This document shows, one piece after another, positions 8,960-40,447 of a stretch of DNA of 61,916 bases (position 1 is its first letter; each line of letters begins with the position of its first letter). The stretch is from Dehalococcoidia bacterium (GTDB lineage Bacteria > Chloroflexota > Dehalococcoidia > Bin125): NCBI GenBank assembly GCA_022822375.1, contig JAJEBU010000005.1, forward strand, positions 1-61,916, given 5' to 3'. The notes beneath the pieces were generated by a model. It did no database searches, was not told the origin of the DNA, and saw only the letters and a list, made by a program, of their open reading frames with translations. Both the position numbers and the translations under genes were made by a program.

Positions 8960-10054
8960 CTAGTGTCCTGAGTCGGGAATACGGTTGAGATATCCGGCGA
9001 GGTTGTCGAAGATTTGGTCGGCGGTCTTGTGCCAGACGAAGGGGCGCGGATGCTCGTTCCAGTCGGCCACCCAGCGCTCGACGGCCGAGGTCAGGTCGGC
9101 CACGCTGCGATGCGCTCCGCGCCGCAGCCATTTCGTGGTCAGTTCCGCGAACCAGCGTTCGACCAGATTCATCCAGGAGCTGTAGGTCGGGGTGAAGTGG
9201 AAGCTGAAGCGGGGATGGCGCTGGAGCCAGTGCTGGATCGCCGCGGTGCGGTGAGTGGAGACGTTGTCCAAGACGACATGCACCGCGAGTTCGTCAGGTA
9301 CGTTCTGGTCGATCAGGTCGAGGAAGCGCTGGAACTCGCGGGCCCGGTGTCGCGGGCTGAGGTCGGCGATCACGTGTCCTGAGGCCACATCGAGCGCCGC
9401 GTAGAGGTTGGTGGCGCCGTGCCGTACGTAGCCGTGTGTCTGGCGGCGGGGCACGCCGGGCAGCATCGGCCGGGTCGGCGCGGTGCGGTCGAGCGCCTGG
9501 ATCTGCGTCTGCTCGTCCACGCACAGCACGACCGCCGCTTCGGGCGGGTTGAGATAGAGGCCGGCGACATCGCGCACCTTGTCGATGAACTGCGGGTCGG
9601 GCGAGAGCCGGAACTGCTCGACCAGGTGCGGCTTGAGACCGAAAGCGCGCCAGATCCTGGAGATCGAGGTCTGCGACATGCCCAGCTCGGCGGCCATTGA
9701 GCGGGTTGACCAGTGGGTCGCCTGGCGCGGCAGCTGTTCCAGCGTCTTGACGATCACCGCCTCGACCTGCTCGTCGCTGATCGTGCGGGGCGCGCCGGGA
9801 CGCGGCTCATCGCTCAGTCCATCGAGCCGCTGTCGGTCAAAACGCCGCCGCCACTTGCCGGCCGTGACCGGATGACAACCCAGCGCCGCAGCGATCTCGA
9901 TATTCGTCTGTCCGCTCGCCGCCGCCAGCACGATCCGGCAGCGCAGCGCCAGCGCTTGCGCCGTGGTCGGTCGGCGCGCCCAGCGTTCCAGCGTCTCTCG
10001 CTCTTCCTCGCTCAATATGATCGTCACCGCCGGGCGGCCCTGTCGGGTACTCAT
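8960..10054 (-). CDS. IS630-family transposase
   Basis: 364 residues from the ATG at 10054 (GGAG at -9; the frame extends upstream without a better start). The N-terminus carries a helix-turn-helix (TNIEIAAALGCHPVTAGKW) and a second winged-helix region. The catalytic DDE domain shows VVLCVDEQTQIQALD (first Asp), VVLDNVSTH (second Asp) and SSWMNLVERWF (Glu), the standard IS630/Tc1-mariner arrangement. Full length with no frameshift, so the element may still be active. Confidence 0.9.
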   Translation of the reverse strand: MSTRQGRPAVTIILSEEERETLERWARRPTTAQALALRCRIVLAAASGQTNIEIAAALGCHPVTAGKWRRRFDRQRLDGLSDEPRPGAPRTISDEQVEAVIVKTLEQLPRQATHWSTRSMAAELGMSQTSISRIWRAFGLKPHLVEQFRLSPDPQFIDKVRDVAGLYLNPPEAAVVLCVDEQTQIQALDRTAPTRPMLPGVPRRQTHGYVRHGATNLYAALDVASGHVIADLSPRHRAREFQRFLDLIDQNVPDELAVHVVLDNVSTHRTAAIQHWLQRHPRFSFHFTPTYSSWMNLVERWFAELTTKWLRRGAHRSVADLTSAVERWVADWNEHPRPFVWHKTADQIFDNLAGYLNRIPDSGH

Positions 10055-10143
10055 GAGACTCCAACGAAAGCCCTGGACGGCCAACACCACTGTGTCCCAT
10101 CACAATACCCGTTTCTTCAACGTGTTAACGACTCAGGACACTA
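8961..10143 (-). mobile_element. Complete IS630-family insertion sequence
   Basis: The ends TAGTGTCCTGAGTCG (8961-8975) and CGACTCAGGACACTA (10129-10143) are perfect 15-base inverted repeats including the flanking TA expected from IS630 target duplication. The element encloses one intact transposase gene. A decayed second copy of its left part lies at 12476-12700. Confidence 0.85.
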
Positions 10144-16432: not shown

Positions 16433-16620
16433 GTCATCCTCAACGCCATCGTCAAATGCAACTCGCCCTGGCAAGCGGCTCGCGCGGCTTGACCATCAAA
16501 ACAGTTGCTCTCGGATGCAGCGATCGTCCTCTGGCTGGCAGCTGATCTAGTCTCGAACCTGACGACCTGGTCAAGACCGTGGCGAAGTGGTCAATAGTTC
16601 CTGGCGATTTACACCACGCT
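16433..16620 (+). repeat. IS110 3'-end repeat, copy 2 (with 10518-10700)
   Basis: Contains VVILNAIVKCNSPWQA and the same downstream sequence as copy 1. Only the tail of the transposase gene remains. Confidence 0.6.
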
Positions 16621-16675
16621 CTCGCGGACCGGGCCCGTTGGCGCGAGCGTCCCCCTTCGTAAGGTTGCGGCCCAT

Positions 16676-17410
16676 TCAACTGTTACCGGAACCCCGTTCC
16701 CATCCCTTCCAGAGTTCAGCGAGTTCCACGGCTTGCACCACGCGCTTTTGAAGCCTCTCACGGACCGCCAGCTCGGTTTCTTCCGCCGTCATATCGAAGC
16801 CCATAATGCCCGTGATTAACCGCCACCCCTCTGGTGTAGGGGCGACTCCCTTCTCAATCATTTCGTCGATGAGGTGCCTCGACGATGCCTCGAATTGCGC
16901 CTCGCAGTACTCGCACTCGGAGGGATGGTGGCCTCCGATGTGTGCTTCACTCGCTCCAAGCCAAACAGCACCCCCTAGCTCCAAGTCCATTCTCGCCAGT
17001 TTGGCGAAGGCCAAGAACGCCTTCACGCCGCTCGTCAGTGCGAGCGTGTCGCTGGTCAACTCATCCAATCGCTCGGCCGTCCAGTGGTACGATCCCCGCA
17101 CCTGCCGCGAGTTGTGGTAGACGAGCCCAGCGTCCGACGCGATCGCGTGCTCCAACTCGTTCCTGCGTCGCTTCAGCCCTTCCCATCTCGACAGAATCCC
17201 CGGCGTGAACGCATCTTCGTTCTCCACGGCACGCTGCATCGTCTTGTCGATCCAGGTAGACATCTCCCGCATGCGCCTCCCGCCAGATCCCATCTGGGTG
17301 CGCAACCATTGTTGGGCAGCGCTGGGATCGTAGTAGGCACAGAGGAGCAGGACTTGGCGTTCGAGTTCCCGCCACGCCGCCTTAAACGGCCCCTCATCCA
17401 ACGTCTCCAC
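16676..17410 (-). CDS. HEPN-like protein with a CxxC motif
   Basis: 244 residues from a GTG at 17410 (GAGAGG 5 bases upstream). Mostly helical and charged. RRRNELEHAI contains RX4H (R83, H88), the motif of HEPN RNases. A HHPSECEYCEAQFE segment (C166, C169) may bind a metal. The C-terminal ~100 residues are duplicated as a truncated copy at 24770-25045. The family is not recognised. A toxin/defence RNase role is inferred from the motif alone. It faces the cassette-2 genes tail to tail. Confidence 0.6.
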   Translation of the reverse strand: METLDEGPFKAAWRELERQVLLLCAYYDPSAAQQWLRTQMGSGGRRMREMSTWIDKTMQRAVENEDAFTPGILSRWEGLKRRRNELEHAIASDAGLVYHNSRQVRGSYHWTAERLDELTSDTLALTSGVKAFLAFAKLARMDLELGGAVWLGASEAHIGGHHPSECEYCEAQFEASSRHLIDEMIEKGVAPTPEGWRLITGIMGFDMTAEETELAVRERLQKRVVQAVELAELWKGWERGSGNS

Positions 17411-24480: not shown

Positions 24481-24769
24481 CCGGCCTGGCTGCCAACCAA
24501 CTGGGGTTCGCAAGACCACATCGAAGGCCCTTCCCTGTGCGCTGGCGAGGTCGGGCCGTGCGCGCGTCATCGCCTCCGCCAGTCGTTGGCTGCCCTCCAG
24601 CCGCTCCGCTCCTTGGCCAGCCCTGCCATGAAGATAGCCAGGGGCCGTCCGCCGAGCGGCAAGCCGCGCCGACGGGCGTTCTCGCGATCCGCTCATCCAC
24701 GCTCTCGCCGACCGCACCCGCGGGCGCGAACGTCTCCGTTCGTCGAGGTACGGCCCGTTTGACCTTTAC

Positions 24770-25045
24770 CGGAGCCCGTCTCCCAGCCCTTCAGGAGTTC
24801 GGCGACCTCGACGGCTTGTTCAGCCCGTCTCTGAAGCCTCGCACTGACCGCCAGCTCTGTTTCTTCCGACGTCATATCGAAGCCCATATTGTCTGTGATA
24901 AATCGCCACCCCTCCTGTGAGGGGGTGACTCTCTTCTCAATCATTTCGTTGATGGGGTGCCTCGACAATCCCTCGAATTGTGCCCGGCAGTATTCGCATT
25001 GGGAGGGATGGTGGCCTCCTATGTGTGCTTCGCTCGATCCAATGG
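24770..25045 (-). pseudogene. Truncated copy of the 16676-17410 HEPN-like gene
   Basis: SEAHIGGHHPSQCEYCRAQF then MIEKRVTPSQEGWRFITDNM and TSEETELAVSARLQRRAEQA align with the last ~95 residues of the 16676-17410 protein at roughly 75% identity, keeping the CxxC. The N-terminal part with the RX4H motif is missing. The open frame reads on into unrelated sequence at both ends. Confidence 0.75.
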
Positions 25046-25189: not shown

Positions 25190-28100
25190 TCATCGGTCAG
25201 CGCTTTCCCAACCGTTGGGATAGACCTCCGCGGGCGAGATACTTAGACATGGGGTGGGGCCCTCATTTCGGGAGCTGCTGGGTGAAGTCACAGGCGTTGG
25301 GAGCGTTGGTGACCGCACAGGGCTCACGTCGAGCACGACGACGCTGTTTTTGCGGGACTCTTCATACGAGAGTGACTCCTCAAGTCGCGCCTTGAAGTCT
25401 TCAAGTGCCGATGGACGAATCCCCACGGGCGGAGGCGTCATTTCGGCGTCTTGCCACCACAACACCAGATAAATCCCATAGCCGGATGTGGCGGTGTCGC
25501 GGGCGTACTTCCCGATGAGCTGGGTCTTCATCGCCCTCCAGAGGTCGCGATGGCACACTTTCTTGATCTCCACTGGGACGTTGAAACTGGAGGAAGAGAC
25601 GCGGATATCCGAGCGCTTGTCACCCACATATTGCCCTTCTGGTTGGGCATCCACGCCTCGCGGCAACAGTGGGCGGAGGTGGTCCATTAGGGCGTCGCGA
25701 CACGAGTCCTCGTGCTTCGGGGACTCCGGCCGACCGTGCGAGTCCTCGTTCCAGTACTGGCGCCATTTGTCCGCGTTGCTGGATTTGATGTCTGATGCGA
25801 CGGTGTCGAGTCGCTCAAGGAGTAGCGCTGCCAGGTCGGCGGCATTCGCCGGTCCGGCGTCGCTCAGAGATTGCTGCAGCTGGCCAAGAGTGGGATGGAC
25901 AAAGGTCGCCTCACGGTGAAGGGCGCGCTGATACTCCCCGTTTCTGGCGATGAACTCGTGCCAGCGATTGAGATTGGGATTGGATGCGAGTGCGGCAAGT
26001 ACTTCTGTCGCATCACTTCCTGGCAAAGCCCCCAACTGCCGGATGAAGTGTCCGACTTGCTCGGATCCCTTCATCTCCGTGGTGACGGATCCTGACTCGT
26101 ACATGCTCCCTGGAGCGAACGACGGCCCCATGAGCTCGATCAGGACACGCAGCGTCTCCACGTTCAGCTCGAAGTCACCTGTTTCAAGTGACGGCGCGCC
26201 ACCCAAGAACTCGACGAGGTGTCTCGTTCGTCGTTCGTTCTCGCCGACGAATTGGACCATTCGATCTCTGAAACGCTCCGGGTCCACAATCGCTCCCGCC
26301 GCCAACCAATGCGTCCGCTGGGCCACGCTCATGCTCCTGGCACGCAACCTGGAGTCGATGAGTTGGACAAAGGAGGGTTGGTTGGGAAGTCGAAGCGCCT
26401 GCCAAAGAAGGGAGCGGAGCGCGGCCAACTTCTCGATACTTGCTCGCAGCGGAAACTTCGCCAGGACCTTGAGTATTGCGTCGTGACGGATTTCGGGAGC
26501 GTCGCTCATCAGCTCGATGGCCCTCAGGGCCGGCCAATAGAGCCCATCGTGGCGCAGCCTAGCGATAGCTGTCTCAGTGGCGACTGACGCCACGAGCCCC
26601 GGCGTTTGCTCCACCCAGACGTCGTGCCAATCAGGAGGTTGCGCGAAGCCCGCTGGACTGCAGTAGTAGAGCGCTAGAGCAGTCCGAATCTGATCCTCAG
26701 ACAGCTCCTGTAGTACCTCCGAGTCTCCGTTGTGCAAGCAATCAAGCCCTGCTTGTACGGGATAGGCGATCAAGTGCTGACGAGACTCCGTGCTGAGTCG
26801 GATGACCTCATCGGCCTCCGGCAAGTCACTGCGCCACAGCGACTGACACAGAGCGATCAGCGCCGCTTCAACCAGATCATTGTTGCCGCCCAGAAGATTG
26901 GCTAGACGGCCGATTGGCCCGCTTGGCTCCAGTTCGGACAGCGGATAGCGGAAGTACGCGTTCCCGAGGTCGCGAACCAGCGAAAGTGGCGCCTCGTTCT
27001 GGCGCAGCGCTTCAACATGCTCACGGACAAAGTCGATTCCTCGTTGACGTTCGGCCTCGCGTTTCGCAGCTCGTTCCGGATGCCAGCGGTTAGCGCGTTC
27101 CTGCTCGTGTTGACGGACGCCTTGAAGCAGTGCGGAGAGCTGATCCTCAGGCGCCTTGACCCCCTTTACGCGGGCGCGTAGCAGGTCAAGAGAAATGACG
27201 TCATCCAGATAGGACCGAAAGGCCTGCCTGAGCAGGAATGCTGAGGCCTCCGGGTGTGATGGTGCCAAGCGGACGGCATGCTCCGCGTACCAAGCCCCGA
27301 ATTCGGCAGGCAACGAGTAGCGCTGCATTGGGCCGATCACCGAGCGTTCCAGGTCAAACGTGTGTTCACCATGAGGCCAGCGGCTCAACCCATGCAGGAT
27401 CACTGACTTTTGAATGTCTGGGCGTTCCTCTAGCCAGGCGCGTACCTCTTCCAGAGCCTCCGCCTCGTATAGATCCACTTCTTCCATTGGAGGCACAGCA
27501 GCAGTCAACCAGGCATGGAGGTGAGGCACCGTCAGACTCTCGCCTTGCACCTTGAGTCCACGCGCAAGAAGGCGGAAAACGATGTCGCCCGCATTGTGTG
27601 AGTCCAGCGCGGGCCAGACGTCCTGGAAGCGAACTGACAACTCGTCCAACAAGTCGATCACGTCAAGATCAGAGGACTGTTGCAGGAGCTGGGTGTCCCA
27701 GAACAGCGATTCGAGCCCGTAGTAGTTTTGCCTCTCGCGCAGATTGAGAAAGTGCCAAACACGTCGCGGGGGTACCGCGTGTGGGTAGAGGAAACTCAGG
27801 AGCCTACCAGTCAGTTCGCCTTCGTGATCGGTGACAACGCCTGCATGGATATCTTCCAACAGCCTCTTGGCACCTTCTGTCGATTCGTCGTGGGCTTCCT
27901 TGATCATTAGCAGGGCGTCAAGCGCACTGGACCGAACATCGGGCCAACTGGACTGATCGCGAACAATCTCATACAGCAGTGGCGCCAGCTTGGGAGACGC
28001 AGCCCGTTTTCGGAGGAGGCCCAGCACAAACCTGGTCGAATGCTGCTCTTTGGTTTCCCTTGATGGTCTTCCTAAGACTTCGGCTAGCGTCGGCTCCATC

Positions 28101-29371
28101 TCTTCAGCAGTCAGGGGTGCCAGCGATAAACCAGACTCGGGTCCGCCTGAGTCGAGCAACAGCGGAGCGACGGCGTCCTGGCCGCAAAGGGCTTGCAGCA
28201 ACAGGCTGCGTTCGCCGACGCTGAAATCGGCCAGATCGCCGTACAGCGCCACCCCCACAAGGTCTCGTTCAATCAGGACGTCTCGGGATTGCGGACAAAG
28301 CGCGGCGATCCAGCCCGACAGACCTCGCATCTCACTCACCACGACGCCATCGGAGCCGCAGATCAAGGAAAGGATTCGCCGTACAGAAAGCCCTGCCTCA
28401 ATTCGACTCGCCAGGTAGCGGGCGGCTAGGAACTCAGCAACGTGCCGGTGGATCGGAGCAAACCGCCGCTGCCCGAGTCCGCGAAACAACCGCGTCGCGA
28501 CAGCTGCTCTGGCGACATCTACCGAAGTGGTGCCGAAGCTGTCGAGCGAGAAGTAGCCGACGTCGGAATCATGGAAATCCAGTGAGACTCCTGCAGATCC
28601 CGTGATCAGCAGGGCAGCGCGGACGAATCCTGCCGCGTTGAGCAGTTCTTCAAGTGGCGGCTGCGAGGCTCCAATCTGGTGCTCCTCATTTTGCTCGCGA
28701 GCCATGACCTTGCAAGCCATCTCGAACGTTGCTGTGCGGCTCGTCGGCCACTGCTCGCCACCACGGACCACTTCGGCAAGCATGTTGAGAGTCTGTGGGT
28801 TGGACAACAGATCGCCCACTCCTCGGAACTGTGCATTAGCGATGAACCCTTGAGGATCGCCGACCCGAGGATGGTCGCGCAAGATCAGCTCAATGTCATC
28901 ATCTGACAACGGGTCGAGGTGTAGGACTCTGATTTGCGAAGAGGGACTCACTCGCCTGAGTCGGCTCAGATCGTTGTTGCCCAACCAGTCGGCCTCGCGA
29001 CAAGCCAGCCGGAACTTCGGCCGGCCAAGCGCGTCAAGCCGATGCCGAATCTCGTCCAACGCAGTCCGAGCATCAACCGCTCCAGTTCTCACCTCGTCGA
29101 GTCCGTCGATGAAGAGCGCCTTGCCGTGCAGCTCCGGGTGACGGTCTAGGTCCAGCGTGAGGAAGTCGCGCGCGTCAACAAAGGCGGCCAGCTCTCCCGC
29201 TAGTTCGCACTCTTGTCTCAGCGCCGTGGACTTGCCTAGTCCTGGCTCGCCCAACAGAACGTAGGCAGGCGCAGATCGAAGCTCGCTCAGCCGGACAGAC
29301 ATAGTGTCGTCCTCCTGAGTACGGTCGTTCTTTACGACTTCGGTGCAGTTGCGCTCAACGATGGTTGTCAT
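25190..29371 (-). CDS. Giant NACHT-like NTPase with C-terminal PD-(D/E)XK-like nuclease domain
   Basis: About 1,393 residues from the ATG at 29371, which overlaps the upstream stop (ATGA). An ATG at 29302 with AGGAGG 8 bases upstream is an equally good start. Near the N-terminus LLGEPGLGKSTAL is Walker A and ALFIDGLDEVRTG Walker B in the DGLDE form of NACHT NTPases. IHRHVAEFLAARYLA follows as in NACHT winged-helix ends. The long middle (~400-1200) is helical, repeat-like. Around residue 1250, DIRVSSSSFNVPVEIKK followed by QLIGKY and YGIYLVLWW fits a restriction-endonuclease fold (D, then ExK). NTP-dependent nuclease sensors of this kind belong to the Avs/bNACHT defence proteins, but the nuclease is usually N-terminal. 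It sits behind an AAA/DUF4143 pseudogene in the same operon. Confidence 0.7.
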   Translation of the reverse strand: MTTIVERNCTEVVKNDRTQEDDTMSVRLSELRSAPAYVLLGEPGLGKSTALRQECELAGELAAFVDARDFLTLDLDRHPELHGKALFIDGLDEVRTGAVDARTALDEIRHRLDALGRPKFRLACREADWLGNNDLSRLRRVSPSSQIRVLHLDPLSDDDIELILRDHPRVGDPQGFIANAQFRGVGDLLSNPQTLNMLAEVVRGGEQWPTSRTATFEMACKVMAREQNEEHQIGASQPPLEELLNAAGFVRAALLITGSAGVSLDFHDSDVGYFSLDSFGTTSVDVARAAVATRLFRGLGQRRFAPIHRHVAEFLAARYLASRIEAGLSVRRILSLICGSDGVVVSEMRGLSGWIAALCPQSRDVLIERDLVGVALYGDLADFSVGERSLLLQALCGQDAVAPLLLDSGGPESGLSLAPLTAEEMEPTLAEVLGRPSRETKEQHSTRFVLGLLRKRAASPKLAPLLYEIVRDQSSWPDVRSSALDALLMIKEAHDESTEGAKRLLEDIHAGVVTDHEGELTGRLLSFLYPHAVPPRRVWHFLNLRERQNYYGLESLFWDTQLLQQSSDLDVIDLLDELSVRFQDVWPALDSHNAGDIVFRLLARGLKVQGESLTVPHLHAWLTAAVPPMEEVDLYEAEALEEVRAWLEERPDIQKSVILHGLSRWPHGEHTFDLERSVIGPMQRYSLPAEFGAWYAEHAVRLAPSHPEASAFLLRQAFRSYLDDVISLDLLRARVKGVKAPEDQLSALLQGVRQHEQERANRWHPERAAKREAERQRGIDFVREHVEALRQNEAPLSLVRDLGNAYFRYPLSELEPSGPIGRLANLLGGNNDLVEAALIALCQSLWRSDLPEADEVIRLSTESRQHLIAYPVQAGLDCLHNGDSEVLQELSEDQIRTALALYYCSPAGFAQPPDWHDVWVEQTPGLVASVATETAIARLRHDGLYWPALRAIELMSDAPEIRHDAILKVLAKFPLRASIEKLAALRSLLWQALRLPNQPSFVQLIDSRLRARSMSVAQRTHWLAAGAIVDPERFRDRMVQFVGENERRTRHLVEFLGGAPSLETGDFELNVETLRVLIELMGPSFAPGSMYESGSVTTEMKGSEQVGHFIRQLGALPGSDATEVLAALASNPNLNRWHEFIARNGEYQRALHREATFVHPTLGQLQQSLSDAGPANAADLAALLLERLDTVASDIKSSNADKWRQYWNEDSHGRPESPKHEDSCRDALMDHLRPLLPRGVDAQPEGQYVGDKRSDIRVSSSSFNVPVEIKKVCHRDLWRAMKTQLIGKYARDTATSGYGIYLVLWWQDAEMTPPPVGIRPSALEDFKARLEESLSYEESRKNSVVVLDVSPVRSPTLPTPVTSPSSSRNEGPTPCLSISPAEVYPNGWESADR

Positions 29372-30624
29372 GGCTCTTGCAACCATTCATCCGCTGGCGC
29401 TGCTAGGAACTCGTTCAGGGGAATGTCGTTCTCACTCACAATCAGAGATGGTGGTGCGGCAAAGCGCCGCTCAAAGTCCCTCAGCGAGAACTCGTTGGCC
29501 GGACCGACACCGCTCTTGACCTCGACCGCCCGAACCGCATGTCCTCTCTGGAGCACGAAATCGACCTCGCTGCCGCCATCCCGCCAATGGGACACGCTTA
29601 CGCTCGGCGATGCGGAGTTGAGCAGGTGCGCGCCTACACAGCTCTCGACCAATCGACCCCAATAGGTGCGATCGGCCCTCGCTTCGGCGAACGTGTACCC
29701 GGAAGTCGCGGTCATCAATGCCGTGTTGCGAATGGCGAGCTTCGGGCTTGCGCCACGTCGGCGCTGCACGCTTCCGGAGTGCTTGGGCAGGCCCGTCAAC
29801 AAGCCTGCCGTGGACAGCAAGTCGAGATAACGCGCCAGGGTCGTCGTGTTGCCGGCATCCTGCAGCTGCCCAAGCATCTTGTTGTAAGAGAGAATCTGGC
29901 CAGAGTAGGATGCGCCGAGCTCAAACACCCTTTTGAGCAGCGCCGGTTTGTCCACACGTGTCATCGCCAGTAAGTCCCGCTCCAGATGAGGTTCGATCAG
30001 CGACTGCTGAATGTAGCTGCGCCAGCGATCTTCATCAGCTACCAAGCCGGCGGCGCCCGGATACCCACCGAAGTAGATGTACTGGTCAAGCGTGAAGTTG
30101 AAGGCAGTCGCCATTTCTGGGAACGACCAATTGGTCACGGGGATCGACTCGAAGCGCCCTGCCAGGCTCTCGCTCAGGCCGGACTGAATCGCCAGCGGCG
30201 CTGAGCCGAGCAAGACCACATGCATTGTCAGGTTGTTGGCGCGATCGGCGTCCCAGAGACCCTTGACAACCTCGGACCAGTTCGGAATCTTCTGAATCTC
30301 GTCGAAGACCAGCACGAGCCTGGCGCCGGACTGCATCGTTAGCCGCCGGGAGCCCTCCCACTGCCTGGTCAGCCATTCGGCATCCCGACCCTGGTTCAAG
30401 GGCAGAGATGGTATGAGGGAGACACTTGTGGAGATTCCGCTAGAGGTTGGCTCAGGCTCGTCAACCGCCAGATACCTGCTCGGGAGACTAGTCTGGCGAA
30501 GGGCCTACCTGATGATGGTCGTCTTGCCAGTCTGCCGGGGGCCGAAGAGCGTGATGAGCCGCGCCGGTTCCTCAGAGAATCGGTCAACGACCGTCGCGAC
30601 GGTGGCCCGCTCGAATCCTGCCAT
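29368..30624 (-). pseudogene. AAA_14/DUF4143 ATPase interrupted by one in-frame amber codon
   Basis: The frame from the ATG at 30624 to the stop at 29368 is continuous (419 codons) except for a TAG at 30505-30507 (codon 40), where relatives would have a residue between TTIIR and ALRQTS. The P-loop GPRQTGKTT lies before the stop. LVLVFDEIQKIPNWSEVVKG, LLGSAPLAIQSGLSESLAGR and FYFGGYPG-like sequence are typical of AAA_14. SEVDFVLQRGHAVRAVEVKS is the DUF4143/nuclease-like C-terminal end. These ATPases are common orphan or toxin-like genes. Without readthrough the product lacks its P-loop. The stop overlaps the next gene (ATGA), so the pair evolved as an operon. Confidence 0.75.
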
Positions 30625-30833: not shown

Positions 30834-31085
30834 CAGTATACGACGGCCCAACCATCATGTACCGAATTGCGAACCCCTTCGGCGAGCGCCACTTTAGCGG
30901 CATCTGTGCGGCCAATTGGACTGTCTTCCGGCATCGGGATCGTGTAGTTGATCACGGCCCGGCCGGGCTCGACGTCGATCCGCTTGATGAACGTGCGGAG
31001 GAACGCCTTCGACTCGGTGATGTCGCTGGTGCGCAGGAACTCGGCCAAGTCGGCGGCGACTTCAGCCTTGTCGAGCAGCACGCGG
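30834..31085 (-). pseudogene. Serine recombinase C-terminal relic
   Basis: VAADLAEFLRTSDITESKAF then LRTFIKRIDVEPGRAVINYT and IPMPEDSPIG resemble the C-terminal tail of large serine recombinases. Only ~80 residues remain; it abuts the surface-protein relic in the opposite orientation. Confidence 0.55.
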
Positions 31086-32673: not shown

Positions 32674-35600
32674 ATGTCTGATTTCGTGCGCGAGGATGCA
32701 TTTCCAAGTCTTCGCGGTGGCGCAGCGACTAAGACCGCCGACCTCTATGAGCGCGCCTGGACCGTTCAAAGCCTGCTGGACCTGCTCAGCGGTGAAATCA
32801 CGCAACTTCGTCTGGAGGAGCAAGGGCCGGACGGCCTCGGCGTTGAGTTTTCCCGCGTCTTGAAGAGCGGCGAGGTCGAGTATCACTCCGTCAAGCGTCA
32901 AGCCCCCGATTCGGCTGGGCGCTGGTCACCGGCCGAGATCACCAAGCAAGCCCGATCCGGCGCTCGGTCGATCCTCTCAGATCTCTTCGGCCATCTGGCG
33001 AACAATGAGACGTGCCGAGCGGTATTCGTCAGCCAAGACGGCGTGGCGCACTTGCGTGAGGCGGCGGAGCGGGCGCGAGCTTCGACAAGCTTGGAAGAGT
33101 TTCTTGGGCGCATCTCAGGAGAACAAAGTCGCGCCTTCAACGACCGAGTCGCTCCCCTCGCCGGCACACCCGCTGAAGCATTCACCAAACTCAGGGATTG
33201 CGAGTTTGCCACGATCGGGCATCGTGAACTCGTGCGTCACATTGAGCAGCGCGTCGCAGCGCTGATCGGCCGTCTCGACGGCGGTGAGACAGATCCCACG
33301 CTAGTGAGGGTGATGCTTGAGGATTTCGCCTGCAGCCGGCTGGGGCAAACCGTTGAGGCGGAGGACGTCAGGGAGAGGTTGGCCGCGCATGGCTACCGCG
33401 AACAACGCCTGCCCTCCCAAGAACACACTCTGCAGCAGATTCAAGCCCGCACCGATGCCTATCTCGGTCGAGTTGAGCAGGCGTTGATCAACGGCGCCCC
33501 GATCGCGCGGTCCCAATCGGTCGAAATCGCGGAGAGGCTAGCGAATGCCGACCAGCCACTCGTGCTCGACGGCGAAGCTGGGGTTGGCAAGAGCTGCGTC
33601 CTGGCGCAGGTCGTGCGACGGCTCGATGCAGCAGGGGTCGTCTCCCTCGCGTTCCCCGCGAGCGATCTGAGAGGGGCGTTCTCCTCGCCCGAGGTCGGCC
33701 AGCGCCTGAGCTTAGGAGACTCCCCGGCCAGGTCTCTCGCGCTCGTCGCACAAGGGCGCCCCGCCGTCCTCTGCATCGACCAACTCGACGCCTTGGCCGG
33801 GGAAACTGAGAGGAACGATCTCGGCCACCGCGTCCTCCGAGAGCTGGTGAGCGAAGCCACCCAGTATCCAAATCTTCGAATACTGTTCGGCTGCCGCTCG
33901 TTCGACCTCGAAGAGGAAACGTCGCTCAAGTGGCTCACCGGGGGTCCTTCGCCGGTGGCAGGCAAGATCGAGGTGACCACGCTGACGGTCGAAGATGTGC
34001 GGAGCGCGCTCGAACTGGCCGCGATCGACCCTCGTGAACTTAGCGAGAGCCAGACTGATCTGCTCCGCACTCCGCTCCACCTCTACCTGTTCATTGAGGC
34101 TGCGCAATCGCGCGAGCTTCGCTTTGCAGCGATCGATGACCTGTTCGATGCCTACTGGACGGAGAAGTCGAAGCGAGTATCGCGTCGCCCGCTGGTCGCG
34201 AGCGGCGGTTGGTCGGCGGCAATCTCCACGCTCAGCGACGCGCTCAGCAAGCGCGAATCCCACACCGCCCCGGACTATGAACTGCTCGATTCGCACCAGG
34301 AGACGGCGTCCGCACTGGCATCGGAGTCGGTCGTGTTCATCCAGCAGGGCGAGGTCGGCTTCTTCCACGAATCGTTCTTCGACTACGCATTCGCGCGCAG
34401 CTTTGCCGCACAGCAGCGCGACCTAGTGACATGGCTGAGAGAGGACGCGCAGGGATACTTCCGTCGCAGGCAAGTTCTCGGCGTGCTCGTCTTTCTGCGC
34501 CGTCGAAGAGCCGATCGAAGTCGATATCTGCAATGGCTTGAGCACTTGTTGGTGGATGGAGAAGTCCGGTTCCACATCAAGAAGAGTGTGTTGGATTGGC
34601 TCCGCTCTCTCTCCGACCCTTTAGAGAGTGAATGGGAGGTCCTCCTTGGCTTGGACCCCTCGCTGGGTGCTCACCTCTGGGAAGTGCCCAGGAACTCCGT
34701 GCCTTGGTTCGACCTTCTCCAGAAGAGTGGCCAGTGGAGCCGATGGCTGCGGGCTGACTCCGAGCAGATTGACAGAGCCGTTCGACTGCTTGGTGCTCCT
34801 GAGGTAATGACGGAGCGGACAGCTGCGGTCGTCAAACTTGTTGAGCAGAATCGCGACGACTCCGTCGAGTGGCGAGATCGGCAGTGGTGGTTGGCGAGAT
34901 GGGGTGACGGATATGGAAACCCCGAGAAACAGCGATGGCTGTTAAGCCTGATCGCGTCCGAGCCGATGGGTGATTCAGGCGCCAACCGTGTGCGTGGCGA
35001 TGTGATCTCTTCAATCCTGCACGGTGTTCTGCGCGTGGATCCGCCTTTCTCCGCGACGATTGTTGGTGCCTGGTTCGATCGCCGAGTTCCTCTGATGCTG
35101 GCGAGTGGCTCAGCTGACCGGTTTCACGATCGGTGGGAACTGGACGTTGAAGATTGGGCCCTAGCCGACTGCGCGAACTCAGAACCACTGGCATTCGTCC
35201 AGGAGATGTTCCCTCGACTCTTCATGCTGGAACAGGTAGCTCCACTGACGTTCATTGGGCCGCCTGGGGAAACGAGCCATGGCCGGCCTGATATTCACTC
35301 TCTGGCGGCGGAATCGATGGCGCAGGTAGCCAGCGCAGACCCAGGCGCCCTGAAGGAGCTGGTTGCCTCCGTGTCAGGTAGTCAGGTGGCGTGGACTCGG
35401 TGGACGTGTACTGCATGGTTGAACGCCATGAGCAACAATCCTGAAGTCTTCGCCGACGAAATCGTGCGATTCATTCTGCAGGACCCCAATCACCGGCTTG
35501 ATTTGGGATACAGCTGGGGCATTGGAAGTGCGGAGATCTTTGTCGCCGTTAGTCGGACAGCGGTGGCGGCCGCCACGGCTCTCTGCCCGGAGGATGTGTT

Positions 35601-37242
35601 CCAAGACCTGGTCGAGGCGATCCTGAGCATCCAGCCGCAGCGCGAGTGCTCCGAAGAACAACGCGCGAGCGTTGAACTCGCACTCCTCTGGTGCCTACCC
35701 GATGACAGAATCGACACGACGATCCGCCAGCGCATCATCGAGCTAGAAGCCCGTTTCCCGGATGAAGACAGGCGCGGCGCCCCTGAGGACGATGCAGAAA
35801 ACGTTGGATTTGCGTGGGCGGTGTCTCCCATTTCCGATGAGGAAGCGTTGAGCATCTCGGACGAACAGTGGCTGGCGAAGATGCGCGAAGTGGCTGAGAC
35901 CGGCGAAACGTTCCAGGGGAACGCGTTTGTGGGTGGAGTGCACGAGCTGTCCCAGACGCTAGAAGCGGCCACCCGCCAAGACCCCGCCCGCTTCGCTCCC
36001 CTGGTTGACCGGATGGATGCGTCGGACAGGCCGGAGTACTTCGAGGCGGTGTTGAGCGGATTAACGACAAGCAAGGAAGACCCGCCTCGTTCTGGATCCC
36101 TGGATCAAGCGGTCCACGTCTTGCTGCGCATCAGAGATCTCGGTGTCGAGGTACATGGGAAGGCAGTCGCGCGAGCGATTGGGGCGCTCGCCGATGAGCG
36201 GGTGCCTGAGGCCCTGTTGAGTTGGCTGTGTCGACTGGCCGTCGACGATCCTGATCCTGAGACTGACGACTGGCTGGTTCCCGAGGGGCCAATGGCGCCA
36301 ATCAGCCAAGCGATCAATACGACGAGAGGGACCGCAGCAGAAGCGATAGCCAAGCTCCTCATTGCTGACAAATGCCGGTGGGACATGCTCCGAGACACTG
36401 TCAGCCAGCTCCTAGTTGACCCCGTGCTCGCTGTGCGCGCAACGGCGGCGCACTGTCTGTTGGCCATTCTCGACGCGCACAGAGAGGAGGCTTTCAGCGG
36501 CTTTCGTCGTCTGATCGAAGGAGCCGACTCGATAGCCGGTTCGTACTATGTTGAGCACTTCATTCGACGCGCCACGCGGCACAACTATGCGGACATGAGG
36601 GACTCGTTGGTCCAGTTACTCGAATCGAAGGAACCATCGGCTGTGCGCGTGGGCGCTCGCTGGATCGTCCTGTCCGCAATCTTCGCCGAGAACTCGGCTG
36701 CTCGCCAAGACGAACAGCGGGTACTTGCGTCAGGCGAGTGCGCCCGAGCGGGAGCGGCCGACATCTACGCGGCTAACATTCTCGACCAAGAGGCTGGACA
36801 ACGGTGCGTCGAACGCCTTGCTGAGATGTTCGACGACGAAAGCGACGCCGTGAGGGAGTCTGCCGCTGGTTGCTGGTTCTCTCTCAGTCCCGATCAGATC
36901 ACCGAACAAGGCGCACTCTTAAGGGCGTTCGCCCGGTCAAGGGCATTCGATGATTTTCGGCTGACTGCCCTTCTGCATCGGCTGGGAGAAGCGACGCTCC
37001 CGCTGCCGGCGGAGCTATGTGAGATTGGCGAACGAGCGATTGAGTCCTTCGGGGAGAAGGCGGCTTCGGTTCAGCACAGGGAGGCGCTCGACGCAAGTCT
37101 CCTGGCGAAGCTGCTGATCACATTGCTCGATCAGACAGTGGACCCGGACATCAAGCATCGAGTACAGGACTCGATTGATCGGATGATCGAGGGCGGCTTC
37201 TACGGTGTGGAGGAAGAACTCCAGCGCCGACTTACTCGGTGA
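32674..37242 (+). CDS. Giant STAND-like NTPase with N-terminal nuclease-like domain and helical repeats
   Basis: 1,522 residues from the ATG at 32674. The N-terminus (GGAATKTADLYERAWTVQSL then LGVEFSRVL...EVEYHSVKRQ, ~residues 15-76) resembles DUF4297/Cap4-type PD-(D/E)XK nucleases, with the E-x-K-like VKRQ strand. Walker A, LDGEAGVGKSCVL, is at ~299-311; Walker B, VLCIDQLDAL, at ~364-373; and a sensor-like GCRSFDLEEE follows. The last ~900 residues are helical, with HEAT-like repeats (DERVPEALLSWLCRLAVDD; AVRATAAHCLLAIL; AVRESAAGCWFSL). The architecture of nuclease, NTPase and repeat sensor is that of Avs-type antiviral STAND proteins. It ends 89 bases from the 3' end of tRNA-Glu, the likely island border. 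No obvious partner gene, so it may act alone. Confidence 0.7.
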   Translation: MSDFVREDAFPSLRGGAATKTADLYERAWTVQSLLDLLSGEITQLRLEEQGPDGLGVEFSRVLKSGEVEYHSVKRQAPDSAGRWSPAEITKQARSGARSILSDLFGHLANNETCRAVFVSQDGVAHLREAAERARASTSLEEFLGRISGEQSRAFNDRVAPLAGTPAEAFTKLRDCEFATIGHRELVRHIEQRVAALIGRLDGGETDPTLVRVMLEDFACSRLGQTVEAEDVRERLAAHGYREQRLPSQEHTLQQIQARTDAYLGRVEQALINGAPIARSQSVEIAERLANADQPLVLDGEAGVGKSCVLAQVVRRLDAAGVVSLAFPASDLRGAFSSPEVGQRLSLGDSPARSLALVAQGRPAVLCIDQLDALAGETERNDLGHRVLRELVSEATQYPNLRILFGCRSFDLEEETSLKWLTGGPSPVAGKIEVTTLTVEDVRSALELAAIDPRELSESQTDLLRTPLHLYLFIEAAQSRELRFAAIDDLFDAYWTEKSKRVSRRPLVASGGWSAAISTLSDALSKRESHTAPDYELLDSHQETASALASESVVFIQQGEVGFFHESFFDYAFARSFAAQQRDLVTWLREDAQGYFRRRQVLGVLVFLRRRRADRSRYLQWLEHLLVDGEVRFHIKKSVLDWLRSLSDPLESEWEVLLGLDPSLGAHLWEVPRNSVPWFDLLQKSGQWSRWLRADSEQIDRAVRLLGAPEVMTERTAAVVKLVEQNRDDSVEWRDRQWWLARWGDGYGNPEKQRWLLSLIASEPMGDSGANRVRGDVISSILHGVLRVDPPFSATIVGAWFDRRVPLMLASGSADRFHDRWELDVEDWALADCANSEPLAFVQEMFPRLFMLEQVAPLTFIGPPGETSHGRPDIHSLAAESMAQVASADPGALKELVASVSGSQVAWTRWTCTAWLNAMSNNPEVFADEIVRFILQDPNHRLDLGYSWGIGSAEIFVAVSRTAVAAATALCPEDVFQDLVEAILSIQPQRECSEEQRASVELALLWCLPDDRIDTTIRQRIIELEARFPDEDRRGAPEDDAENVGFAWAVSPISDEEALSISDEQWLAKMREVAETGETFQGNAFVGGVHELSQTLEAATRQDPARFAPLVDRMDASDRPEYFEAVLSGLTTSKEDPPRSGSLDQAVHVLLRIRDLGVEVHGKAVARAIGALADERVPEALLSWLCRLAVDDPDPETDDWLVPEGPMAPISQAINTTRGTAAEAIAKLLIADKCRWDMLRDTVSQLLVDPVLAVRATAAHCLLAILDAHREEAFSGFRRLIEGADSIAGSYYVEHFIRRATRHNYADMRDSLVQLLESKEPSAVRVGARWIVLSAIFAENSAARQDEQRVLASGECARAGAADIYAANILDQEAGQRCVERLAEMFDDESDAVRESAAGCWFSLSPDQITEQGALLRAFARSRAFDDFRLTALLHRLGEATLPLPAELCEIGERAIESFGEKAASVQHREALDASLLAKLLITLLDQTVDPDIKHRVQDSIDRMIEGGFYGVEEELQRRLTR

Positions 37243-37330
37243 ATGATCGGGTGCCGCAGCGGCAGGACAGCCAGCCCTACAGCTCGAGCGGGAAGCGAAT
37301 CTCGAAGGTTCTTGATTTTGTCCAGTTTGG

Positions 37331-37403
37331 TGGCCCCAACGGGATTCGAACCCGTGCTACCAGCTTGAAAGGCTGGCGTCCTAGGCCTCTAGACGATAGG
37401 GCC
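37331..37403 (-). tRNA. tRNA-Glu (anticodon TTC)
   Basis: A 73-nt cloverleaf: acceptor GGCCCTA with TGGGGCC, anticodon stem-loop CCAGC-CTTTCAA-GCTGG with TTC, T-arm CGGGTTCGAATCCCG. No encoded CCA. Its 3' end faces the island, the usual side for integration into tRNA genes. Confidence 0.95.
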
Positions 37404-39424: not shown

Positions 39425-40447
39425 TCAGTACCGGAGATCCTCAAGACTAGAGAGTCCGCCGAACAACTCTGGAGGCAGTTCCGTCAGCGGATTTCCCCAC
39501 AGCCACAGCACTTCGAGGTTCTGCAAGTTGTCGAAGATTCCCGCTGGGAGGCTCGTCAACTGGTTCTCTCGGAGACTCAGCCACTCGAGCTGACCCAGGC
39601 TGTCGAACAATCCGGCTGGCACTTCGGTTAACGCGTTGTCGCCAAGGTTCAGCACCCTGAGACTCTGTAATTCGTCGAAGATACCAGGGTGGACGGTGTT
39701 GAGATCGGTGTGGCCCACATACAGTTCCTCGAGGCTGTGCAAGCGATCGAATATGCCTTGAGGAAGAGTGGTCGAGGTTGTGTGACCAATGGCGAGCCTG
39801 GTCAGGTTGCGAAGCGGATCGAATAGCCCTGGCTCAGTTGGGACGATCCCCACATACAACATTTCTAGATTGGTGAGCGATTCGAACAAACCGTTCGGCA
39901 GGATGACAGTGTGGTCGCGGTCCCCATAGGTGTTGTGGTAGATCTGCAACTCTCGCAAGCTGGCCAGGTCATCGAAGATCCCGAGCGGCACTTGATCAAC
40001 GTTTACATTGATGAACAGCCGCTCCACGGATGTCAGGCCCAGAAGATCGTCCGCTTCCAGCGCGGTGAAGGTGTAGTGATCAGCAAGATCGAGCTGTCCG
40101 GTGATGCTCGCCAGATCACCATCCGACACATCAGCGCAGTCGTCCTTGTCGAGTGTCCAGAGGATTTCGCGTTGAATGTGCTCGTGCCGGTCACAGATTC
40201 CCCCCGCCGCCGCCTGCTGAACCGCATCTGCCCCATCTGCCGAAGTATCAGGTTCGCGACTTTCACTCGCTTGCGGCAGCTCGCTCCCCGCCGCTTCCTC
40301 TGCCGCGGCGCCCACTGCGTCTCGTTGACCCTGTTCAGGCTCCGACACGCAAGAGCCGAGCAGAATCGCCATCAGCAGCAACGGCAAGATCATCGCCGTG
40401 ACGGCGGCAAAGCGATGGGTCCGGGGTCGGCGGATGAGTTTGGCCAT
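39425..40447 (-). CDS. Leucine-rich-repeat lipoprotein, truncated by a nonsense codon
   Basis: 340 residues. The signal peptide ends in a lipobox, AILLGSC (C33), so the mature protein would be lipid-anchored. An acidic linker and a CDRHEHIQREIL cap precede about nine leucine-rich repeats of the LxxLxLxxNxLTxLPxGIFDxL type from ~130 to the end. This repeat style is eukaryote-like and used for protein binding on host-associated bacteria. The last repeat is cut at TGA where the aligned repeats have Trp (TGG). The downstream sequence stays in register, so this is one substitution or a readthrough site. Confidence 0.8.
   Translation of the reverse strand: MAKLIRRPRTHRFAAVTAMILPLLLMAILLGSCVSEPEQGQRDAVGAAAEEAAGSELPQASESREPDTSADGADAVQQAAAGGICDRHEHIQREILWTLDKDDCADVSDGDLASITGQLDLADHYTFTALEADDLLGLTSVERLFINVNVDQVPLGIFDDLASLRELQIYHNTYGDRDHTVILPNGLFESLTNLEMLYVGIVPTEPGLFDPLRNLTRLAIGHTTSTTLPQGIFDRLHSLEELYVGHTDLNTVHPGIFDELQSLRVLNLGDNALTEVPAGLFDSLGQLEWLSLRENQLTSLPAGIFDNLQNLEVLWLWGNPLTELPPELFGGLSSLEDLRY

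What the first reader, a model, noticed from the sequence alone, without database searches (positions are those of the whole stretch)
32674..37242. Nuclease-STAND-HEAT giant next to tRNA-Glu
N-terminal DUF4297/Cap4-like segment, STAND NTPase and long HEAT-like C-terminus fit a self-contained phage sensor. It is the last island gene before the tRNA, a common place for defence cargo.
Basis: partly seen in the sequence, partly recalled or inferred. Interest (0 to 1): 0.6.

Follow-up and report, generated by a model that had tools for sequence, protein, structure and literature searches.

The report
NLR-like phage sensor, altered nuclease site
This single large bacterial gene very probably encodes a stand-alone anti-phage immune receptor (DNA-cutting domain, NLR-type switch, long repeat sensor), a known type of defence protein but of an unnamed family, whose branch has a rearranged nuclease active site not seen in its other relatives.

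Summary
Window 32674-37242 (+) is one intact 1522-aa gene ending 85 bp from tRNA-Glu. AlphaFold models (pLDDT 92 and 90) and fold searches give three parts: residues 11-245, a Cap4/DUF4297/HamA-type PD-(D/E)XK nuclease (HamA Z 15.0, HerA-DUF4297 Z 13.9); 246-600, a NACHT NTPase like NLRP9/NLRC4/NLRP3 (Z 20-23); 600-1522, a HEAT/ARM solenoid. Co-linear relatives occur in many phyla and lie among defence genes: 310 PADLOC model matches in 199 neighbour genes against 11 in 220 control genes of the same contigs. It is Avs-like in build but falls far below the Avs2/Avs3a cut-offs. Its closest solved relative is PDB 9n00 (E 9e-50). The unexpected feature: the window's clade has S-x-K where all 55 other members checked have Q-x-K, and all 21 clade members carry an acidic residue at position 103, as in permuted Cfr10I-type active sites. 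The swap arose once, so the permutation is an inference. Verdict: a defence NLR of a known kind, with a variant nuclease centre.

The parts
32674..37242 (+). CDS, 1522 aa, nuclease-NACHT-HEAT protein
   Evidence: ORF listing; full-length homologues
32704..33408 (+). Cap4/DUF4297/HamA-like PD-(D/E)XK nuclease domain, residues 11-245
   Evidence: Model; HamA 8zue Z 15.0 over 21-241 and HerA-DUF4297 9c1m Z 13.9 over 18-240; Pfam PF14130 E 6e-4 for this protein and 1e-7 for the best relative
32815..32817 (+). Glu48, acidic residue conserved in 68 of 69 full-length members
32845..32847 (+). Glu58, acidic (E/D) in all 69 members, the 'PD' position
32887..32895 (+). Ser72-Val73-Lys74: S-x-K in place of the Q-x-K of other members; Lys invariant
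32980..32982 (+). Asp103 in the next helix, acidic in all 21 S-x-K members; proposed relocated carboxylate
33409..34473 (+). NACHT/STAND NTPase and winged-helix region, residues 246-600
   Evidence: NLRP9 Z 23.3, NLRC4 21.8, NLRP3 about 21; Avs3/Avs4 top Foldseek hits
33571..33594 (+). Walker A GEAGVGKS, residues 300-307
33766..33795 (+). Walker B region VLCIDQLDAL, residues 365-374
34366..34386 (+). Family signature HESFFDY, residues 565-571
34474..37239 (+). All-helical HEAT/ARM solenoid, residues about 601-1522, putative sensor
   Evidence: Model pLDDT 90.1; PP2A-A/importin-type solenoids Z up to 17
37328..37403 (-). tRNA-Glu(ttc), island border
   Evidence: synteny break in 12 genus relatives
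30845..31084 (-). Remnant of a serine recombinase C-terminus (89% identical to the complete recombinase beside the homologue in L043)
25190..29386 (-). Neighbour: EruA-like NACHT antiphage protein, 1398 aa
   Evidence: NF058535 E 9e-260, 865 bits
29368..30399 (-). Neighbour: PDC-S01 defence candidate (AAA_14 + DUF4143), reading frame interrupted by a stop after Walker A further upstream
   Evidence: 469 bits

Best explanation
A self-contained NLR-type antiphage receptor that works like Avs3/Avs4. In an uninfected cell the NACHT switch keeps it off. The HEAT/ARM solenoid binds a phage component; the protein then oligomerises through its NACHT domain and brings pairs of N-terminal Cap4-like nuclease domains together, which degrade DNA and abort the infection. 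In the branch to which this gene belongs the second metal-site side chain of the nuclease has probably moved: E58 and K74 stay, Q72 has become Ser, and D103 on the following helix supplies the carboxylate (order PD...K...D instead of PD...(D/E/Q)xK). Shown here: domain folds by prediction, conservation of the motifs, defence-gene neighbourhood, absence of a fixed partner gene, mobile-island setting. Inferred: the trigger, oligomerisation, DNA cleavage, cell death, and the role of D103.
For: Confident models of both halves. Nuclease fold matches HamA and HerA-DUF4297; NACHT matches NLRs; Avs3 and Avs4 head the Foldseek list. PF14130 Cap4_nuclease in 11 of 57 relatives. Walker A/B and family signatures are kept. 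Defence-gene enrichment of 310 versus 11 PADLOC model matches, and two further defence-type genes in the window. No gene recurs beside family members outside one Streptomyces lineage, so it seems to act alone. The segment 701-1000 is the most variable (24% mean identity against 32-40% for nuclease and NACHT), as a sensor might be. Published: the DUF4297, Avs3 and Cap4 nucleases share one fold and Avs3 cuts after tetramerisation (PMC11291478); Avs1-4 nucleases cut phage and host DNA on recognising phage packaging proteins (PMC12931631). Permuted PD...K...E centres are established in Cfr10I-family enzymes (PMC6344858, PMC551604).
Against: No experiment on this family was found. The S72/D103 association rests on one evolutionary origin, and 4 of 55 Q-x-K members also have D103. 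No coordinates were available to measure whether D103 reaches the metal site. Whole-model TM-scores to Avs3/Avs4 are low (0.23-0.29), so the overall arrangement is not shown to be the same.
Confidence: 0.78

Rival explanations
1. The S-x-K branch carries a dead nuclease kept as a structural or dimerisation module, so the protein acts by another output.
For: Loss of the canonical Q of QxK; a catalytically inactive HamA-like domain is reported in AbpA (PMC12278908).
Against: K74 is invariant, residue 58 is always acidic and E48 all but invariant across the 19-21 members in five phyla at about 36% mean nuclease identity, and 103 is the only column of the domain that is acidic throughout this branch and almost never elsewhere. 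A decaying active site would hardly keep these.
Confidence: 0.15
2. It is a member of an already named Avs family (Avs2, Avs3 or Avs4).
For: Same domain order; 16 of 57 relatives match one PADLOC Avs2 model; Avs3/Avs4 are the top Foldseek hits.
Against: NCBIfam scores are 15.8 bits (Avs2, cut-off 1000) and 15.7 bits (Avs3a, cut-off 2800); PADLOC Avs2 matches only linker and NTPase, 28 bits.
Confidence: 0.07
3. It senses DNA damage or a foreign DNA state, like Hachiman, rather than a phage protein.
For: The nuclease fold is closest to HamA, and Hachiman is a DNA-integrity sensor (PMC12278908).
Against: There is no helicase; the C-terminus is a HEAT/ARM solenoid, a protein-binding scaffold type, joined to an NLR-type NACHT domain.
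Confidence: 0.12
4. It is not a defence gene but a regulator that happens to sit in an island.
For: HEAT and NACHT proteins also have other roles; no phage assay was found.
Against: Patchy occurrence (4 of 15 genomes of the genus, 9 of 393 in the class), defence-gene neighbours in unrelated phyla, nuclease effector.
Confidence: 0.05

Closest known systems
PDB 9n00 / 9n01 / 9yix, 'AAA family ATPase', 1523 aa
   Same: Co-linear over both halves: nuclease plus NTPase E 8.7e-50, C-terminal half E 2.6e-24
   Different: Distant (not found by single-sequence search); QCK motif instead of SVK; no paper or named family found here
Avs3 and Avs4 (AVAST types 3 and 4; 8dgc, 8dgf)
   Same: Nuclease, STAND NTPase and long C-terminal sensor in one protein; top Foldseek hits
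   Different: No sequence membership shown; low whole-model TM-score; S-x-K nuclease motif
Avs2 (PADLOC PDLC02164, NCBIfam NF041813)
   Same: Weak similarity over residues 156-409
   Different: 28 and 16 bits, far below cut-off
PDC-M54A (PADLOC defence candidate)
   Same: Best PADLOC match, 50 of 57 relatives, NTPase region
   Different: Only residues 194-588 align, 54 bits in a 1621-position profile
HerA-DUF4297 and Hachiman HamA nucleases
   Same: Fold of residues 18-241 (Z 13.9 and 15.0)
   Different: Those are separate subunits paired with a helicase or HerA ATPase; here fused to a NACHT switch
Cfr10I/NgoMIV-type restriction enzymes
   Same: Carboxylate of (D/E)xK relocated to a later position while the Lys stays (PMC6344858, PMC551604)
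   Different: Restriction enzymes; used only as a precedent for the active-site order
EruA (NF058535), in the same island at 25190-29386
   Same: Also a NACHT antiphage protein
   Different: Different family, with a nuclease-like motif at the C-terminus

Membership tests
PD-(D/E)XK nuclease, Cap4/DUF4297/HamA group | alpha-beta core fold | tested here: met
   Model strands 42-47, 59-63, 68-74, 114-120 with flanking helices; Z 13.9-15.0 to group members
PD-(D/E)XK nuclease, Cap4/DUF4297/HamA group | First acidic residue and catalytic lysine | tested here: met
   Residue 58 (E/D in 69 of 69) and K74 (69 of 69)
PD-(D/E)XK nuclease, Cap4/DUF4297/HamA group | D/E/Q two residues before the lysine | tested here: not met
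   Ser72 in the window's branch; Gln in all other members; possible replacement D103. Variant motifs are known in the superfamily, so this limits the claim of a canonical active site, not of the fold
PD-(D/E)XK nuclease, Cap4/DUF4297/HamA group | DNA cleavage | not testable with these tools
   needs purified protein
STAND/NACHT NTPase (NLR-like) | NACHT fold with Walker A/B and winged helix | tested here: met
   Z 20-23 to NLRP9, NLRC4, NLRP3; Walker motifs
STAND/NACHT NTPase (NLR-like) | Ligand-induced oligomerisation | not testable with these tools
   experiment needed
Avs2 (NF041813) | Curated score cut-off 1000 bits | tested here: not met
   15.8 bits
Avs3a (NF041816) | Curated score cut-off 2800 bits | tested here: not met
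   15.7 bits
Avs4 | Sequence membership | tested here: inconclusive
   No Avs4 model among the matches in PADLOC or NCBIfam; structural resemblance only
PDC-M54A (PADLOC) | Full-length profile match | tested here: not met
   54 bits over 194-579 of a 1621-position profile
Family of PDB 9n00 | Co-linear homology over the whole length | tested here: met
   E 8.7e-50 and 2.6e-24 by family profile; function of 9n00 not known here

The most novel reading that the evidence does not exclude
The branch is an NLR-like, Cap4-type immune nuclease with a permuted but active PD...K...D catalytic centre: the metal-site side chain moved from the beta strand (Q72) to the following helix (D103), with states holding both (L006, L021, L050, L052) still present among relatives.
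Probability: 0.4. Interest if true: 0.5.

Novelty: new variant of a known kind. Interest (0 to 1): 0.42.

Why it matters
It adds a widespread, unnamed family of single-gene bacterial NLRs, spread over many phyla, to the pattern-recognition receptors of bacteria, and gives a concrete, mutagenesis-ready prediction (S72, K74, D103) about how an immune nuclease could re-wire its active site without losing it.

Tried and rejected
Single-sequence phmmer against solved structures gave only chance hits; only the family profile found 9n00. The first genome-contig scan with the lone protein found nothing; the alignment query found 80 loci. No homologues were found in phage records or viral contigs, so it is not phage-borne in those collections. 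A fixed partner gene was sought and not found. A tRNA-derived att repeat at the other island end was not found. The idea that tRNA-Glu is a general defence hotspot in the genus was not supported. Literature searches for EruA/HyoA, PDC-M54 and 9n00 found nothing; two key Avs papers are not held. 9n00 is not listed by the structure searches, probably because it is newer than that library (inference).

Full report
The observation. The ORF at 32674-37242 (+) is intact and 1522 aa long; tRNA-Glu lies 85 bp beyond it on the opposite strand. The window belongs to a 2.7-Mb assembly of 158 contigs. Its nearest named relative (60% identical protein, L036) comes from a Chloroflexi MAG, SB0664_bin_20, and other relatives are named Dehalococcoidia, so the host is probably a member of that class (inference).

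Domain search. By single sequence the protein gives only sub-threshold hits: AAA 0.0014, NACHT 0.03, HEAT 0.005, and PADLOC PDC-M54A 1.3e-15 and Avs2 1e-7 over the middle only. With the N-terminal half alone, PF14130 Cap4_nuclease appears over residues 14-131 at 6e-4, below the curated cut-off; 11 of 57 relatives match it, the best at 1e-7.

Structure. A 57-sequence alignment gave a 690-residue model at pLDDT 91.8 and an 862-residue C-terminal model at 90.1. Foldseek puts Avs3 and Avs4 first, then animal NLRs. VIA-align places residues 248-672 on NLRP9 (Z 23.3, rmsd 4.1, 395 aligned), NLRC4 (21.8) and NLRP3 (about 21); residues 21-241 on HamA of Hachiman (Z 15.0, rmsd 3.9, 201 aligned); residues 18-240 on HerA-DUF4297 (Z 13.9, rmsd 3.2, 177 aligned). 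The C-terminal half is an all-helical solenoid resembling PP2A-A and importins (Z up to 17.1), which for a repeat fold shows only a common arrangement.

The family. Scans found relatives in 8 or 9 genomes of each sampled set and 80 loci in named genomes across many phyla. The family profile finds one solved relative, PDB 9n00 (1523 aa), E 8.7e-50 for the N-terminal half and 2.6e-24 for the C-terminal half; I could not learn its function. So the kind is known, and a cousin has a structure, but no curated family searched here names this one.

Neighbourhood. For 20 relatives I took all ORFs of 120 aa or more within 7.5 kb on each side (199 genes), and 220 genes from 15-kb stretches elsewhere on the same contigs. 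At E 1e-10, PADLOC gave 168 + 142 model matches near the family (Gabija, DRT, Pycsar, a CBASS-type cyclase, type I R-M, Hhe, TIR effector, several PDC systems) and 3 + 8 in the controls. One gene can match several models, so these are match counts, not gene counts, but the named systems in the first set are at least a dozen different ones and the control set holds mostly generic families. The window itself holds an EruA-like NACHT protein and a PDC-S01 gene. No partner gene recurs across the family, apart from one Streptomyces lineage with conserved surroundings; it looks like a one-gene system.

The altered active site. All 69 full-length members keep K74 and an acidic residue at 58, and 68 keep E48. 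Fifty have Q-x-K; nineteen, including the window, have S-x-K. Position 103 is D in 18 and E in 1 of the S-x-K members and acidic in 2 of the 50 others. Of the first 260 positions it is the only one that is acidic throughout the S-x-K branch and nearly never outside. With seven more members the counts are 21 of 21 against 4 of 55. The S-x-K members form one group (support 97-99), so the swap happened once and the association cannot be tested on independent events. Members with both Q72 and D103 exist (L006, L021, L050, L052), the state expected before such a move. The precedent is the Cfr10I/NgoMIV group, where PD...D/ExK became PD...K...D/E (PMC6344858, PMC551604). The alternative, a dead nuclease, fits poorly with the invariant lysine.

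Mechanism. From the fold and from published Avs3, Avs1-4 and DUF4297-HerA work (PMC11291478, PMC12931631) I infer: the solenoid binds a phage protein, the NACHT domain oligomerises, nuclease domains pair, DNA is degraded, infection aborts. None of these steps was shown here.

The island. In 12 genomes of the genus the tRNA-Glu/aminotransferase block is conserved and homology to the window stops at, or within about 40 bp of, the tRNA 3' end, as expected for an integration site. A remnant of a serine recombinase C-terminus lies at 30845-31084 (-), 89% identical to a complete recombinase that in L043 follows the homologue and runs into tRNA-Ala. DNA similar to the same remnant abuts tRNA-Glu in three relatives. 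The gene is thus probably cargo of recombinase-borne islands.

Verdict. The protein works like an Avs receptor (inference) but is not a member of Avs2 or Avs3a by curated cut-offs. Its interest lies in the unnamed, widespread family and the variant nuclease centre.

Noticed in passing
25190-29386 (-): EruA-like NACHT protein, 865 bits against a cut-off of 1000, full-length match, with a PD-(D/E)XK-like motif (DIRV...PVEIKK) near the C-terminus.
   Followed up: partly
29368-30600 (-): PDC-S01 gene (AAA_14/DUF4143) has an in-frame stop just after its Walker A motif; either a broken gene or a sequencing error.
   Followed up: partly
L021 (G000:C157, 4.4 kb): A second family member in the same genome, with canonical Q-x-K and split into two ORFs of 688 and at least 776 aa.
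   Followed up: partly
L037:12248-12250, L045:7328-7330: Two related genomes share the same in-frame TAG splitting the gene between NTPase and sensor; both halves look under purifying selection (dN/dS about 0.15 and 0.22) and start codons follow closely, suggesting a genuine two-gene form.
   Followed up: partly
L063:6702-6709, L064:12419-12426: Two Rubrobacteraceae homologues are split at the same place near residue 1055 with overlapping ORFs.
   Followed up: no
16614-16913 and 24697-24996: A 300-nt direct repeat, 80% identical, 8 kb apart in the island.
   Followed up: no
8960-10090 (-): DDE_3 transposase with HTH domains in the left part of the window.
   Followed up: no
39425-40447 (-): Leucine-rich repeat protein in the flank beyond the aminotransferase.
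   Followed up: no
L065, L079, L083, L094, L096, L100, downstream of the homologue: In one Streptomyces lineage the homologue is followed by a conserved block including a cyclase-like and a cNMP-binding-like gene (PADLOC PycC among the neighbour hits).
   Followed up: no
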